Below, piece after piece: positions 32,308 to 36,607 of a stretch of DNA of 64,000 bases. The position numbers and the translations under genes are program-made. This DNA is from Tsukamurella spumae (GTDB lineage Bacteria; Actinomycetota; Actinomycetes; Mycobacteriales; Mycobacteriaceae). The DNA lies in the NCBI RefSeq assembly GCF_012396015.1, contig NZ_JAAXOQ010000020.1:1-64000 (forward strand), read 5' to 3'. The notes under the pieces are model-generated. The model did no database searches, was not told where the DNA came from, and worked only from the letters and a program-made list of their open reading frames with translations. Every line of letters starts with the position of its first letter. Positions within the stretch are counted from its first letter, which is position 1.

Positions 32308-33699
32308 TTACCGCCCGGTCTGATTTATCCAGCCTTCCGGACCGGGCAGGTCTGACCGTCGACCTGAAGGTCGATATGGGCGACCGACGCCACCGGCGTG
32401 CCGAGCAACGGCGTCGTTGACTCCCGATACCAACCGGAGTGTCCGTACCCGTCGTCGGAGGTGACGGTGTTGGTCCATGAGCTGACCTTCCCGTCCGTCG
32501 TCGTCACCACGACCGTGACGTCCTTTGCGACGCGACGCCCGATCCACACGTGCGTGTTGACCGGGTCGCCGTACCAGTAGCTCCCCGCGCACGTGTCTGC
32601 AATCGTCGGGACGGTCGTCGGTTCCGGGGTGAACGAGTGCACGGCCGTCGCCGATGTCACCGAGGTTGTCGAAGCCGATAGCGTGTACCCGGGACGAACG
32701 TACGTCGTGGGCGCCTCTGCGGCATGCCCGAGGCCACAGCTGCTCACAAGTCCGGTCGCGCCCACAGCGATCGCGATTCGAGGCAAGTATCGAAGTGACG
32801 TTGTCATTGTTCCTTCTGCTTCCGGTGTAGTTCTTCGCCGTCTCGTTCGGATCTTGAGGCCACGCGCCCACCTGCGTGGTCAGCGCAAACGAGAGCGCCA
32901 GCGACGCAGGAAGTTCCCGGGCTGCGAGGGCTCGGTTTCCGCGACGGGTTCGCCGGGTCGCGCCTCGGGTTCCGATGGTGCGCTCGCGCGAAGGGTACTC
33001 ACGTGACCTGCGCCGGTCGGGTTCCGATGGTGCGCTCGCGCGAAGGGTACTCACGTGACCTGCGCCGGTCGCCGCGCGTGCCGTCGCGACTTCCTCCCGC
33101 GCGGGCGCACCGCCCGCGACGACTCCCTCCAGTTCGGAGGGTGTCATGACGGTCAGCGCGATGATGTCGACCCGGCCAACCGGCGAATCGACCGTCGCGG
33201 GGCGGCCCGACGGAAGTCCTACCAAACAGCCGACGGTGCCATATTCCGTGGCCATCGGACTCTCGCCGATATCGACAGGAAGTTCGATCGAAAGTACGCC
33301 GTACTCCTCTAGCGCCCCGCTGATCCCCTGGCTGTTCGCAACGTTCTGCGCGAAGTTCTGGATGACCTGAAAATGCGGGCTGGACTTGATCTCCTCGAAG
33401 TCGGCACCGCAGAGATCGGGCGTCTCGAGGAACACCTCGCAGCCGAAGCCGGGAAAACTCTCGCCGTCACGCCCTTCAGGATCAGCCAGCCCATCGGAGG
33501 CCAGGATCACCGTCGACGGCGTGCGGACCACCCGGTAAGCTTGCCGCGTGTTCGGCCATGCCGGCGCGCCGCTGAACATCGGGTTCAGCAGGTAGGTGAT
33601 CACATCCGGGTCCACCTCCCCAATGCCCGCCCAGTAGGCATCCATCACAGCGTGATGCCTCGGTGCCGCCGAGTTGTCACGATCGATTTCGTCGGTCAT
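32308..33699 (-). CDS. SUFU-like (putative immunity) protein, tail frameshifted by a tandem duplication
   Basis: Starts at ATG 33699 (MTDEIDRDNSAAPRHHAVMD). The first 200 residues look like a suppressor-of-fused domain (YRVVRTPSTVILASDGLADP, then FPGFGCEVFLETP and LTVMTPSEL). SUFU relatives are predicted immunity proteins in bacterial polymorphic-toxin systems. At about residue 228 the frame meets a 52-bp tandem duplication, which is not a multiple of three. With one copy, translation would end at TGA 32880 as a 255-residue protein closing NFLRRWRSRLR. With two copies it runs out of frame to 32308 (463 codons), over the lipoprotein gene. The family call is by pattern. Confidence 0.6.
   Translation of the reverse strand: MTDEIDRDNSAAPRHHAVMDAYWAGIGEVDPDVITYLLNPMFSGAPAWPNTRQAYRVVRTPSTVILASDGLADPEGRDGESFPGFGCEVFLETPDLCGADFEEIKSSPHFQVIQNFAQNVANSQGISGALEEYGVLSIELPVDIGESPMATEYGTVGCLVGLPSGRPATVDSPVGRVDIIALTVMTPSELEGVVAGGAPAREEVATARAATGAGHVSTLRASAPSEPDRRRSREYPSRERTIGTRGATRRTRRGNRALAARELPASLALSFALTTQVGAWPQDPNETAKNYTGSRRNNDNVTSILASNRDRCGRDRTCEQLWPRACRRGAHDVRSSRVHAIGFDNLGDIGDGRALVHPGTDDRPDDCRHVRGELLVRRPGQHARVDRASRRKGRHGRGDDDGREGQLMDQHRHLRRRVRTLRLVSGVNDAVARHAGGVGRPYRPSGRRSDLPGPEGWINQTGR
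32325..32807 (-). CDS. Putative lipoprotein of unknown function
   Basis: 160 residues with a signal peptide ending in the lipobox LVSSC (about residue 24), so it is likely membrane-anchored outside the cell. The mature part is Thr/Ser/Val-rich, with two cysteines (ADTCAGSYWYGDPVNTHVWI and DGQTCPVRKAG) that may pair. It contains a repeated beta-strand-like pattern (VTVVVTTTDGKVSSW). It is embedded in the out-of-frame read-through of the preceding SUFU-like gene on the same strand; before the duplication the two genes would have been 72 bases apart. No family recognised. Confidence 0.65.
   Translation of the reverse strand: MTTSLRYLPRIAIAVGATGLVSSCGLGHAAEAPTTYVRPGYTLSASTTSVTSATAVHSFTPEPTTVPTIADTCAGSYWYGDPVNTHVWIGRRVAKDVTVVVTTTDGKVSSWTNTVTSDDGYGHSGWYRESTTPLLGTPVASVAHIDLQVDGQTCPVRKAG
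32965..33068. repeat. Two tandem copies of a 52-bp unit
   Basis: 32965-33016 and 33017-33068 are identical (unit starting TCGGGTTCCGATGGTGCGCT). The next three bases also match the unit start. Since 52 = 3 x 17 + 1, gain or loss of one copy changes the frame of the SUFU-like gene that contains it. Confidence 0.95.
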
Positions 33700-34093
33700 T
33701 TCCACTCCATCCCGTTCGAACAACCCTCGCGCTCGTAATTGTCTCGTGACTCCCTGTGGAGCTACACATCCGCTTTCCCATCGCCCTCTAAAGGACTTCC
33801 TCGACAAGATCGACCGCAAGACGACTTCAGTCACGAGCCACTAGATTAGTCAACAACCGCCCGATCCTGTTGCGCGGCCTGCTCGTGATGCGGCGGCGCG
33901 CTGGAATCTGCGGCAAGGAGCTCCTCACATCATCGATACGCCGAAGCCCTGACGAGCGCATGCCCGCTCAAGCTCGAAGAGCCACAAATCTATTGGGCAC
34001 GCCATCGTTCATCGGCGAGCAGGGGATTATCGCAGTGATTCGACCCGATCTGGCGGATTCCGTACGTCGAGAAAATTCGATCTCCTGATGATT
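33700..34093. other. Intergenic stretch, lower G+C
   Basis: About 394 bases between the SUFU-like start and the end of the dead-HNH gene. G+C falls here compared with the flanks. A 72-codon plus-strand frame (33870-34088) shows no coding bias or ribosome site. No convincing RNA or promoter was seen apart from the GGAGTGGA ribosome site just before ATG 33699. Confidence 0.5.
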
Positions 34094-35032
34094 CTAATCG
34101 CCCTGGTTGGCTATCTGCATTCCCTTCCACACTCCCACCGCGGCTCGCACCCAATCCTCCGTCGAAGAAGACGTAGAACTATAACCTGCCACGCTGCCGG
34201 TCATAAACTCAAAACTATCCGGTGTCACGCACTCGAAATACCGAAGCTCCCCTTGACCAGCGACTGAAAACCACCGATGCAGTTCTTCCGCATCGACAAC
34301 CTTTGCCATCACTCCCGATATGGCACCGCGCAAGACTTCCCGCACCGACGCGCTTTCGCCTACCGTCATCGTTCCGAAGTCGCACCACATGCAGATACTA
34401 TCGAGACTAGGGGTCTTCGCGAAATACTGAATTCCCCTCCAATCACCAGCAACTACGTGCGCGCCACCAATTCTTTCGAAACCGATCGTAGCGGCTTCCA
34501 ATCGCTCCGCCTCGGCTGCGCGATAGACCTGAAAGGCGTTGTCGTTCCAATTCGAACTCCCGAATCCCGCGGATAGTTCTGCCAGCGCCCGGCTGTCATT
34601 GTCCATTAGAAGGCTGAGGATAGCCGACCTGATGGCAATTTCCTTAGCAGTTTCGTCCAGTGCGAAATCAAACGCCCAACCGGAGACATCGATCGCCCAC
34701 TGACCGTCTTTGCGCATACTCAACGCTTGGGGCGAAAGCCATCTGAAGTTGGCGGGAATGTTCGCGATAGCGTACATCCACTCGGGCGACAACGACGCAA
34801 ACCCGTCTAACGATACTATCTCATCCAGAGAGACAATGCGATCAACCACTACATCTACCTGACCCGAACTATTCGACTCAAAAACACGTCCAGCCATGGC
34901 TGGATCCGGAGTTCCGATAGGGGGCTTGCCAGGTAGGTTTCGCTCATCCGCTGGCAACAGCACGTCACGGAGGTTCGCAAGGTCAGTCTCAGGCGAAACG
35001 ACCGGCGAGGCTATGTAGCCTAGAATCGTCAT
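34094..35032 (-). CDS. Protein with inactivated HNH-type domain fused to an unknown domain
   Basis: 312 residues from ATG 35032, behind GGAGGATAAGAGA. Residues 47-145 align without large gaps to the C-terminal HNH-like domain of the gene just upstream (SLDEIVSLDGFASLSPEWMY, PANFRWLS, DVSGW, ILSLL). The catalytic positions differ: His becomes Arg65, the metal-site Asn becomes Leu104 and the Lys becomes Arg107. The remaining 170 residues (AGDWRGIQYFAKTPSLDSIC, then MWCDFGTMTVGE) are of unknown type and could be an immunity-like domain. Lower G+C than the surroundings. The toxin-like gene ends 45 bases upstream on the same strand, suggesting a pair. Function is inference. Confidence 0.6.
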   Translation of the reverse strand: MTILGYIASPVVSPETDLANLRDVLLPADERNLPGKPPIGTPDPAMAGRVFESNSSGQVDVVVDRIVSLDEIVSLDGFASLSPEWMYAIANIPANFRWLSPQALSMRKDGQWAIDVSGWAFDFALDETAKEIAIRSAILSLLMDNDSRALAELSAGFGSSNWNDNAFQVYRAAEAERLEAATIGFERIGGAHVVAGDWRGIQYFAKTPSLDSICMWCDFGTMTVGESASVREVLRGAISGVMAKVVDAEELHRWFSVAGQGELRYFECVTPDSFEFMTGSVAGYSSTSSSTEDWVRAAVGVWKGMQIANQGD

Positions 35033-35077
35033 TCTCTTATCCTCCAACTAATTCGACGCGCCGGCGCCGCTGGATAT

Positions 35078-36427
35078 TCAGCCATCGAGGCGCTCAGGAT
35101 GAGATAGCAGACTGTATATCATGGCTTGAATGCTATCACGATTTCTTAGCTCCAGGACGGTCTGTGCATCTCGAAACGACGGATCCCACCCCTTCACATC
35201 TGCTGCTACTCTCGATCTCTTCGCGGAGTTCGCTGGACGAGATAGCCATTGAAGATTGGCTCTCCAATTCATCATGCGATACATGTCCCGAGGTGAGAGC
35301 TTTGCGAATCCGGGCATGCCGACCATCTCCGCCAATGAAATAACGTGGTCGGGCGACACTTTTGACAATCCGCCACTTGTTTCACCGATGGTACGACCCG
35401 ACGACGTGTACGCACCATCGATATCCCCGACCTTTGGGCGCATTTTGCCTTGCAGTGCGTCCGTCGAACTACGCAATGAGCTCGATGGCGTTTTGGGCCG
35501 AAGGATGTCGTAAATGCCCCGCTCGGGCGCATCTCTCGGAATCACAAGACCACGTTCCGGAGAGTAGATTGCACCCGGTCGGGAGCTCGCGAGTGATTCC
35601 GCAGCAGATTGAAGTTTGCTAGCAGTAGACGCCGTGGGTGCTACTGCTCCAGCAAATGCTGGTGCCTCTGCCCTACTGAACGAAGTCGCCACCGGCGCGA
35701 TGGGATTTGATGTGGCGACGCGAGTGAGAGCATCGCCCGTAGCAATACGCCCGAAGTTTGCGGTTTCGGTGGCAGCAGCCCGACCTGTCCCGCCTGGGGT
35801 CACAACTTCTGCGGTCTCGGCACGCCCCGCGAGCTTTGCCGCTTCAATACTCTTCGCCGTCTCTGAAATCTTGCCAATACCAGAGTCGATCTGGGCCTTA
35901 GCAGCCTCAGCAACTCCTCCTGTATTCGAGGGAAATGAGGTATCTACGATCTTAGCGGCTTCGGTTGCCGTCTTTGCGGCGTCGTCGATGATGGGTTGGC
36001 CGATGCGGCTGCCTACTTGAGTCCGAATTTCGCTTTCGGCAGCGATGCGGGCGGCTTGTTGCGCTTCTTGTTTGACGACGGCTACGGTGGCGCCTTCGGC
36101 GATTTTCCGTTCGAAGGTGGATAGGCACGCTTCCTTCGCGGCGGCCGTGATTGCCGTCACGGCTCCGGCTTCTGGTTGGCCGCCAGGGACGAGCATCGCT
36201 GCCCAGCCTGCGTAGTCGGCGATTTTCAGGAAAGTTTCCAACGTGCCCGGGGTAGGACTGGCCTTCCCTGTCCCAATGTCGAGATCGGCGTCACCAAGCA
36301 ACGTCGACTTCTTGATTTGAAACTTGGCCAGTTTGTCGGTAAACGAATCGTTGCCGGCGAATCTGCTCATCTCCAGTACCGACCCGTCAGAGAAGGTAAC
36401 GAACGTTCTCTCTGGCTCGATAGGCAC
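35078..36427 (-). CDS. HNH/EndoVII-like toxin module (5' end uncertain)
   Basis: 449 residues from GTG 36427, which has no ribosome site. The frame stays open to 36604 with coding-like codon use but no start codon, so the gene is probably 5'-truncated. The middle is Ala/Thr-rich and helical. The C-terminal 92 residues have an HNH-like layout: SPDHVISLAEM (D360, H361), then ANLQWLS (N391) and PANSAKRS (N400, K403). Order, spacing and terminal position resemble nuclease tips of polymorphic toxins. No trafficking domain remains. Lower G+C than the core genome, with a homologous but inactivated copy in the next gene. Confidence 0.6.
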   Translation of the reverse strand: MPIEPERTFVTFSDGSVLEMSRFAGNDSFTDKLAKFQIKKSTLLGDADLDIGTGKASPTPGTLETFLKIADYAGWAAMLVPGGQPEAGAVTAITAAAKEACLSTFERKIAEGATVAVVKQEAQQAARIAAESEIRTQVGSRIGQPIIDDAAKTATEAAKIVDTSFPSNTGGVAEAAKAQIDSGIGKISETAKSIEAAKLAGRAETAEVVTPGGTGRAAATETANFGRIATGDALTRVATSNPIAPVATSFSRAEAPAFAGAVAPTASTASKLQSAAESLASSRPGAIYSPERGLVIPRDAPERGIYDILRPKTPSSSLRSSTDALQGKMRPKVGDIDGAYTSSGRTIGETSGGLSKVSPDHVISLAEMVGMPGFAKLSPRDMYRMMNWRANLQWLSRPANSAKRSRVAADVKGWDPSFRDAQTVLELRNRDSIQAMIYSLLSHPERLDG

Positions 36428-36607
36428 TTGCGGGGCAAAACCGCCCGAAACGTGCGGAACAGTTCCGCTGATGGTGTGACTGCTGACCGGATAGACGCCG
36501 TCGAGGAAGAACCCTCTGATCTTGTCCGCGTTGGTACCGAACTGATCGGCCCACGCTTGCGTGACCCGATCTTCGAGTCCGACTGACCTGATCGATCGCG
36601 CATTTCA

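What the first reader, a model, noticed from the sequence alone, without database searches (positions are those of the whole stretch)
34094..36427. HNH toxin-like gene paired with a downstream gene carrying a catalytically dead copy of the same domain
The C-terminal domain of the 35078-36427 product and residues 47-145 of the 34094-35032 product are clear homologues: both have S-L-x-E-x-V, GFAxLSP, xMY, ANxxWLS, DVxGW and a closing SLL. In the first, D360/H361, N391, N400 and K403 form an HNH-type pattern. In the second, His is Arg65, the second Asn is Leu104 and Lys is Arg107, so it should not cut DNA. The dead copy is fused to about 170 residues of unknown type. An inactive toxin domain joined to a possible immunity domain could act as a decoy, heterodimer inhibitor or DNA-site competitor. 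I know of no described family with this make-up.
Basis: partly seen in the sequence, partly recalled or inferred. Interest (0 to 1): 0.87.

Follow-up and report, generated by a model that had tools for sequence, protein, structure and literature searches.

The report
Immunity gene with dead toxin copy
A bacterial gene for a toxin that probably cuts DNA sits beside a gene that joins a disarmed copy of the same toxin domain to what looks like an antidote domain; a second, separately made fusion of this sort and several more disarmed copies turned up in related bacteria.

Summary
Gene A (35078-36427, -) ends in an HNH domain with D360/H361, N391, N400, K403. Gene B (34094-35032, -) carries a homologous module with H to R65 and N to L104; the Lys is ambiguous. 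Local A-B score 162; maximum in 1000 shuffles 69.

The domain type is described: by motif it is Tox-DHNNK (PMC3482391), related to the GmrSD C-terminal HNH. In 22 of 24 intact relatives the adjacent gene belongs to one unnamed immunity-like family. B's C-terminal 160 residues belong to another family, found 48-64 bases behind HNH-tipped proteins in four genomes of the window's genus. So B is most likely an immunity protein joined to a dead toxin module.

Dead copies recur: four unfused ones lack an adjacent immunity gene (0 of 4), and G300 fuses one to the other immunity family.

Open: whether the dead module does anything, and whether B acts on A. B's immunity family was seen with a different HNH domain, and the A-B pair only in this genome. 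A's 5' end may be missing.

The parts
35078..36427 (-). Gene A: toxin-like protein, 449 aa from the first start codon (GTG), C-terminal Tox-DHNNK-type HNH domain
   Evidence: D360, H361, N391, N400, K403 present
35081..35527 (-). A: C-terminal HNH domain, last 149 aa (as modelled)
36428..36604 (-). Open frame continuing upstream of A's first start codon; A may be 5'-truncated or may start in a way not considered
   Evidence: no ATG, GTG or TTG in these 59 codons; stop at 36605-36607
34094..35032 (-). Gene B: 312 aa, dead HNH module plus immunity-type domain
35041..35045 (-). GGAGG, likely ribosome-binding site of B, eight bases before ATG 35032
34607..35002 (-). B: dead DHNNK-type module (about residues 11-142); H to R65, N to L104, Lys uncertain
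   Evidence: model confident over most of this part
34097..34579 (-). B: C-terminal immunity-type domain (about residues 152-312), family A2
33064..33699 (-). Gene C region: further downstream same-strand frame (open frame 32308-33834), unknown; whether it belongs to the cassette is not established
   Evidence: no Pfam match; no match in the 15 other genomes of the genus

Best explanation
A and B are a toxin-immunity cassette of a polymorphic toxin system on a low-GC, probably acquired, stretch. A ends in a metal-dependent HNH nuclease domain of Tox-DHNNK type. B is an immunity protein: its C-terminal domain belongs to a family that accompanies HNH-tipped proteins and most likely binds and blocks such a nuclease in the cytoplasm. 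B's N-terminal half is a toxin module that lost its general-base His and a metal-site Asn and was joined in frame to an immunity gene, as happened separately in G300. Shown by sequence: homology, loss of catalytic residues, family membership and gene order. Inferred: that A cuts DNA, that B neutralises a nuclease, that A is its target, and that the dead module is mainly a folded leftover of a decayed cassette rather than the working part.
For: Homology and dead residues. HNH relation: A1 against four GmrSD_C-like rows, 97.3%, E 2.5e-11, DH/N/N/K aligned; model pLDDT 90.7 with strand, strand, helix around D60/H61 of the modelled piece. Toxin context: 22 of 24 intact loci have an A3 immunity-like gene beside the domain (one of them, L004, only weakly, E 5.7e-5), 0 of 4 dead unfused loci do (Fisher p 7e-4, or 0.003 without L097). 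A related domain lies in a type VI effector with a hypothetical gene right behind it. B's C-terminal family follows HNH-tipped open frames of 825-949 codons in G002, G004, G013, G014. Separate fusion of a dead domain to an A3 domain in G300. Low GC: B 0.549, A 0.572, window 0.700. GGAGG before B's ATG.
Against: B's immunity family was seen with a different HNH domain (hhalign to A's domain only 0.5%), and none of the 24 intact DHNNK loci has it in the stretch examined, so B may not act on A. In two samples of 401 family genomes no other genome had a DHNNK hit beside an A2 hit (only part of the candidates per genome are scored). A has no recognisable secretion part; its N-terminal part matched none of the 15 other genomes of the genus and only weakly, apparently by chance, 12 others of 351 family genomes. 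Its 5' end may be missing, in which case the cassette may be inactive. B's C-terminal half could not be modelled (pLDDT 25-54 per block). In four loci of genus g9 that I read (L028, L030, L033, L038) the A2 gene lies downstream of a dehydrogenase-like gene, not a toxin, so the family may not be only immunity.
Confidence: 0.55

Rival explanations
1. The dead module is the working part, or a needed part, of B: it binds A (mixed dimer or competing DNA-site binder) or holds incoming DHNNK toxins, and the C-terminal domain blocks them, so B is a pseudotoxin-based immunity protein.
For: The six dead rows lost H, second N or K in 15 of 18 cells but other conserved columns in only 44 of 150. After removing the one loss per row that the definition of 'dead' forces: 9 of 12 against 44 of 150, one-sided p 0.002; also leaving out L013 for kinship, 7 of 10 against 38 of 125, p 0.016; counting B's Lys as kept, 8 of 12, p 0.012. 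A dead unfused pair (L012/L013) has dN/dS 0.24 in the HNH part. A second fusion exists in G300.
Against: B kept only 14 of 25 non-catalytic conserved columns and has one of the three longest end branches, which also fits relaxed constraint. No binding evidence. The dN/dS pair are unfused, secreted-type proteins. No second genome with the A2-type fusion.
Confidence: 0.2
2. The stretch is a decaying orphan cassette: A is a 5'-truncated toxin fragment, B a fused remnant, gene C disturbed, and none of it has a present role.
For: A's frame is open 59 codons beyond its first start codon, that start has no visible ribosome-binding site, and low GC begins near the same point. Exact 52-base tandem duplication in the gene C frame. 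No relative of A's N-terminal part or of gene C in the 15 other genomes of the genus.
Against: A keeps all five catalytic residues and B is an intact frame with GGAGG before its ATG.
Confidence: 0.2
3. B is a regulator: the dead HNH fold still binds DNA and controls its own island, and the C-terminal domain senses something else.
For: HNH folds bind DNA (established knowledge); A2 genes in four loci of genus g9 lie behind a dehydrogenase-like gene.
Against: A2 genes follow HNH-tipped proteins in four genomes of the window's genus. No inverted repeat of 20 bases or more and no sigma-70-like site was found near A and B, though the promoter scan does not cover other promoter types.
Confidence: 0.05

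Closest known systems
Tox-DHNNK clade of HNH/EndoVII polymorphic toxin domains (PMC3482391, passages seen)
   Same: DH, N, N, K pattern, C-terminal position, actinobacteria among its hosts, immunity gene adjacent
   Different: No curated profile was on hand to test membership; the third Asn of the published motif was not identified; the partner family found here (A3) matched no Pfam family above its cut-off
GmrSD_C / DUF1524 (PF07510)
   Same: Profile-profile match 97.3%, E 2.5e-11, catalytic residues aligned
   Different: A and B do not match PF07510 at E 10; 1 of 15 domain rows does, at E 0.061
Toxin-immunity fusions of PMC3482391 (SUKH fused to Tox-GHH; Imm35 fused to a papain-like toxin; table rows seen)
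   Same: Toxin and immunity domain in one chain
   Different: The rows seen do not say that the toxin part is dead; B pairs a dead copy with an intact relative one gene away
Tde5 with Tdi5a/Tdi5b (PMC13392607; outline with abstract and sections 5 and 8 read)
   Same: Beta-beta-alpha metal DNase toxin blocked by immunity proteins of unrelated fold; DUF4150 and DUF2169 among the domains named at homologous loci
   Different: Three conserved catalytic His, not DH/N/N/K; no dead toxin copy in the immunity proteins in what I read

Membership tests
Tox-DHNNK | DH, N, N, N, K residues (PMC3482391 table) | tested here: inconclusive
   DH, two N and K present in A and in the other 22 intact rows of 29 ('intact' was defined by these residues); third N not identified
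Tox-DHNNK | HNH/EndoVII (beta-beta-alpha metal) fold | tested here: met
Tox-DHNNK | C-terminal in a secreted or injected toxin, immunity gene next to it | tested here: met
   22 of 24 intact relatives have an A3 gene beside the domain; for A itself the export part is not recognisable and the neighbour is B
Tox-DHNNK | Match to a curated Tox-DHNNK profile | not testable with these tools
   No Pfam or NCBIfam family matched A or B at E 10 and nothing of note in PHROGs or PADLOC at E 1
GmrSD_C (PF07510) | Score at or above the curated cut-off (23 bits) | tested here: not met
   A and B: no match at E 10; 1 of 15 domain rows at E 0.061
A2 family (B C-terminal part; unnamed) | Shared conserved core (D-W-R-G, W, G, C-V, F) and significant matches | tested here: met
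   13 invariant columns in 7 rows; best matches E 1.6e-12 and 1.0e-11 outside the own genome
Immunity protein of a polymorphic toxin | Encoded directly behind a toxin gene | tested here: met
   B lies 45 bases behind A; the shared ATG of the A2 relatives lies 48-64 bases behind the HNH-tipped frame in G002, G004, G013, G014. Counter-examples in genus g9: four loci read
Immunity protein of a polymorphic toxin | Neutralises its toxin | not testable with these tools
   Needs a bench test

The most novel reading that the evidence does not exclude
Bacteria repeatedly turn a toxin's own dead domain into part of the antidote: actinobacterial DHNNK toxin domains lose just the catalytic residues, keep the fold, and are then either kept as secreted-type pseudotoxins without an antidote gene or fused to an immunity domain to make a two-part inhibitor that recognises the live toxin through the dead copy.
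Probability: 0.2. Interest if true: 0.75.

Novelty: new variant of a known kind. Interest (0 to 1): 0.52.

Why it matters
Immunity proteins are as a rule unrelated to the toxins they block (general knowledge). A family in which dead toxin domains are kept under selection, and joined at least twice to different immunity domains, would give a direct way to ask whether a disarmed toxin can serve as a recognition module or a competing pseudotoxin. The split between intact and dead domains that tracks the immunity gene (22 of 24 against 0 of 4) is also evidence, from gene order alone, that the unnamed A3 family is an antidote.

Tried and rejected
Pfam and NCBIfam gave no match for A or B; PADLOC none; PHROGs one chance-level match for A. 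PDB sequence searches with A1 and A2 gave only chance-looking hits. A scan of viral contigs with A gave no relative; no plasmid match for B; no phage match for A (B was not searched in phages). A2 and A3 are not detectably related (hhalign 0.2%), nor are the A2-linked HNH domain and A's domain (0.5%). That HNH domain was not found in the own genome (the tool warns that an empty answer shows nothing). A class-level profile search for A3 found it in 1 of 384 genomes with at most 7 candidates per listed genome scored, so absence there means little. A recent local duplication of A as the source of B is neither shown nor excluded: tree with A and B held together, p-AU 0.289, B on a long branch. Weak matches of A's N-terminal part were read in six loci and look like chance. 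One early gene list was cut in the middle; two scripts stopped with an error at their last step and were redone (76 by 78, 110 by 112).

Rows dropped before counts: L019-L024 were left out of the domain alignments (five GmrSD_C-like rows and L019, a more distant intact-looking relative), as were the hits other than L054 and those already held. Five of the 18 loci repeat loci already held (L081, L083, L084, L088, L093). L094 and L095 were left out of the tree and the residue count as near copies, but kept in the gene-order count. Many gene-order rows are close kin, so the Fisher values are not independent-sample probabilities. L097 is called dead only for its Lys (NxxE); it keeps the His.

Full report
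WHAT IS THERE. On the minus strand, gene A (35078-36427, 449 aa from its first start codon) is followed after 45 bases by gene B (34094-35032, 312 aa). The N-terminal half of B is homologous to the C-terminal part of A: 36% identity and E 2.3e-14 in a search of the own genome, where the only other match has E 0.58; local score 162 against 1000 shuffles with mean 38.5 and maximum 69, 45 identical of 128 aligned. A has D360, H361, N391, N400, K403. B, counted from ATG 35032, has R65 where A has H361 and L104 where A has N400. The Lys position is ambiguous: R107 in the pairwise alignment, K108 with a one-residue insertion in the multiple alignment A1. Loss of the His should be enough to abolish HNH catalysis (established knowledge of the fold).

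Both genes lie in a GC trough: B 0.549, A 0.572, window 0.700; the 11 lowest 1-kb windows of the 64 kb all start between 33,251 and 35,751. That fits acquired DNA. B has GGAGG eight bases before its ATG. A's first start codon has no such site, and its frame stays open for 59 more codons, to 36604. A may therefore be a truncated toxin, or its start is not where the tools place it. Its N-terminal part matched none of the 15 other genomes of the genus and 12 others of 351 family genomes only at E 1e-3 to 1e-2; six of those loci were read and look like chance.

WHAT A's DOMAIN IS. No curated Pfam or NCBIfam model matches A or B at E 10. A's C-terminal domain was found at E 0.001 or better in 20 of 401 genomes of the family. 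On reading the loci, five of these 20 are GmrSD_C-like proteins and one (L019) is a more distant relative; of the five only L020 was scanned, and it matches PF07510 at 4.7e-23. A profile comparison of 15 domain rows with four such rows gives 97.3%, E 2.5e-11, with DH, N, N and K in register. AlphaFold2 on 19 rows gives pLDDT 90.7, with a strand ending in D60/H61, a second strand and a helix, as in beta-beta-alpha metal nucleases. The residue pattern is the one that PMC3482391 lists as Tox-DHNNK (DH, N, N, N, K; passages seen). I could not identify the third Asn and no Tox-DHNNK profile was on hand, so this is membership by motif. A scan of named genomes gave 18 loci in Gordonia, Williamsia, Jongsikchunia, Mycobacterium, Mycolicibacterium, Amycolatopsis, Streptomyces, Virgisporangium, Micromonospora and Cellulomonas. 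A related domain sits at the end of a DUF4150 effector behind VgrG and DUF2169 genes on a Rhizobium tumorigenes plasmid (28.7-30.5% identity, E 3e-4 and 2e-5), with a 218-aa hypothetical gene right behind it.

TOXIN-IMMUNITY LOGIC. Most intact relatives are proteins of about 300 aa with a hydrophobic, signal-peptide-like N-terminus (no signal-peptide program was run); L004 is a 1018-aa one. The adjacent gene encodes a protein of 226-265 aa of one family (A3) without a Pfam name, often followed by a proline-rich membrane protein. Of 29 loci outside the window, 24 keep D, H, N, N and K; 22 of these 24 have an A3 gene beside the domain (L004 only at E 5.7e-5), the exceptions being L054 (G500) and L096 (a Cellulomonas MAG). 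Five have lost catalytic residues: L012, L013, L026 and L097 have no A3 gene (0 of 4; for the first three also none in the longer stretches L108-L110), and L016 has it fused. Fisher p for 22/24 against 0/4 is 7e-4, and 0.003 without L097, which keeps its His; several loci are close kin, so these are not independent-sample values. This is what is expected if A3 is the antidote and becomes useless once the toxin is dead.

WHAT B's C-TERMINAL HALF IS. It belongs to another family (A2), not detectably related to A3. Of 401 family genomes 76 (own included) have some match at E 0.1 or better; the stronger ones (E 1e-12 to about 1e-7) are in the window's genus and in two other genera, g9 and g11. In G002, G004, G013 and G014, all in the window's genus, the A2 gene follows a long open frame (825-949 codons, stop to stop) ending in another HNH domain (GWNVDH..DLQLGG...NLQLL.ASVN); the shared ATG lies 48-64 bases behind it. 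Pfam's HNH matched the G004 one weakly, E 0.002. In G005 and G007 the A2 gene follows another gene of unknown type. In four loci of genus g9 (the genus of Gordonia araii, since locus L008 of that genus reads the same as L081), the A2 gene lies downstream of a dehydrogenase-like gene instead (L028, L030, L033, L038). So A2 looks like an immunity family at least in the window's genus, but for a domain not detectably the same as A's (hhalign 0.5%), and none of the 24 intact DHNNK loci has an A2 gene in the stretch examined. B may thus protect against a different HNH toxin than A; this is the main weakness of the simple pair reading.

DEAD COPIES ARE RECURRENT. In G300 a 351-aa protein joins a dead domain (AR in place of DH; second Asn and Lys lost) to an A3 domain; no other DHNNK domain was found in the 17 kb fetched around it. 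L012 and L013 (DR in place of DH), L026 (D, H, second N and K lost) and L097 (NxxE) are unfused, secreted-type dead versions. On a tree of 29 domains the label needs four changes, at least two of them forced by well-supported branches. Against 23 intact rows, the six dead rows lost H, second N or K in 15 of 18 cells but the other conserved columns in 44 of 150. Allowing for the one loss per row that the definition demands gives 9 of 12 against 44 of 150, p 0.002; also leaving out L013 gives 7 of 10 against 38 of 125, p 0.016; with B's Lys counted as kept, 8 of 12, p 0.012. The first Asn (NLQW) is kept in 6 of 6. The L012/L013 pair has dN/dS 0.38 overall and 0.24 in the HNH part; four intact pairs gave 0.03-0.27 there. 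So at least one dead lineage appears to be under purifying selection. B itself has no orthologue to test, kept 14 of 25 non-catalytic conserved columns, and sits on a long branch. AlphaFold2 gives B's dead module the same order of main elements as A's domain with good confidence, but with intact relatives in the alignment; the C-terminal half is not modelled.

MECHANISM. Most likely: A's domain is a DNA-cutting (inferred) toxin; B's C-terminal domain is an antidote that binds an HNH nuclease; B's dead module is a disarmed toxin cassette fused to an immunity gene. Whether the module is a leftover (slightly favoured) or helps recognise the live toxin cannot be settled from sequence. No sigma-70-like site and no inverted repeat of 20 bases or more was found around the genes, and terminator-like sites were not more than expected (2 against a mean of 2.6).

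NOVELTY. Polymorphic toxins, Tox-DHNNK and toxin-immunity fusions are in print (PMC3482391, passages seen). In my seven searches (listings only, apart from the two papers opened) I saw no paper describing an immunity protein with a dead copy of the toxin domain; those searches are few and the library holds only open papers. I rate it a new variant of a known kind.

Noticed in passing
L016; L048:7540-8595 (G300): 351-aa protein joining a dead DHNNK-type domain to an A3 immunity-type domain: a separate fusion of the same sort with an unrelated immunity family; a resolvase-like frame lies downstream.
   Followed up: partly
L012, L013 (L109, L110), L026 (L108), L097: Unfused, secreted-type DHNNK proteins that lost catalytic residues and lack the usual immunity gene; the L012/L013 pair has dN/dS 0.24 in the domain.
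   Followed up: partly
L081, L082, L087, L089 and others: Recurrent actinobacterial gene order: secreted-type DHNNK protein, unnamed ~236-aa immunity-like protein, then often a proline-rich membrane protein; the examples scanned reached no Pfam cut-off.
   Followed up: partly
L096 (Cellulomonas MAG) and L054/L107 (G500): Intact DHNNK domain but no A3 gene found beside it, against the rule.
   Followed up: no
window 32965-33068: Exact 52-base tandem duplication within the gene C open frame; 52 is not a multiple of three.
   Followed up: no
window 33500-36600: GC trough (0.54-0.61 per 500 bases against 0.70), with a sharp edge near 36.6 kb where the open frame of A also ends.
   Followed up: partly
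L028, L030, L033, L038: In these four loci of genus g9 the A2-type gene lies downstream of a dehydrogenase-like gene, not a toxin, so the family may have a second role.
   Followed up: no
L113:1864-4152 (Rhizobium tumorigenes plasmid pRt932): Type VI DUF4150 effector ending in a related DHNNK-type domain, with a 218-aa hypothetical gene directly behind it (possible immunity gene).
   Followed up: partly
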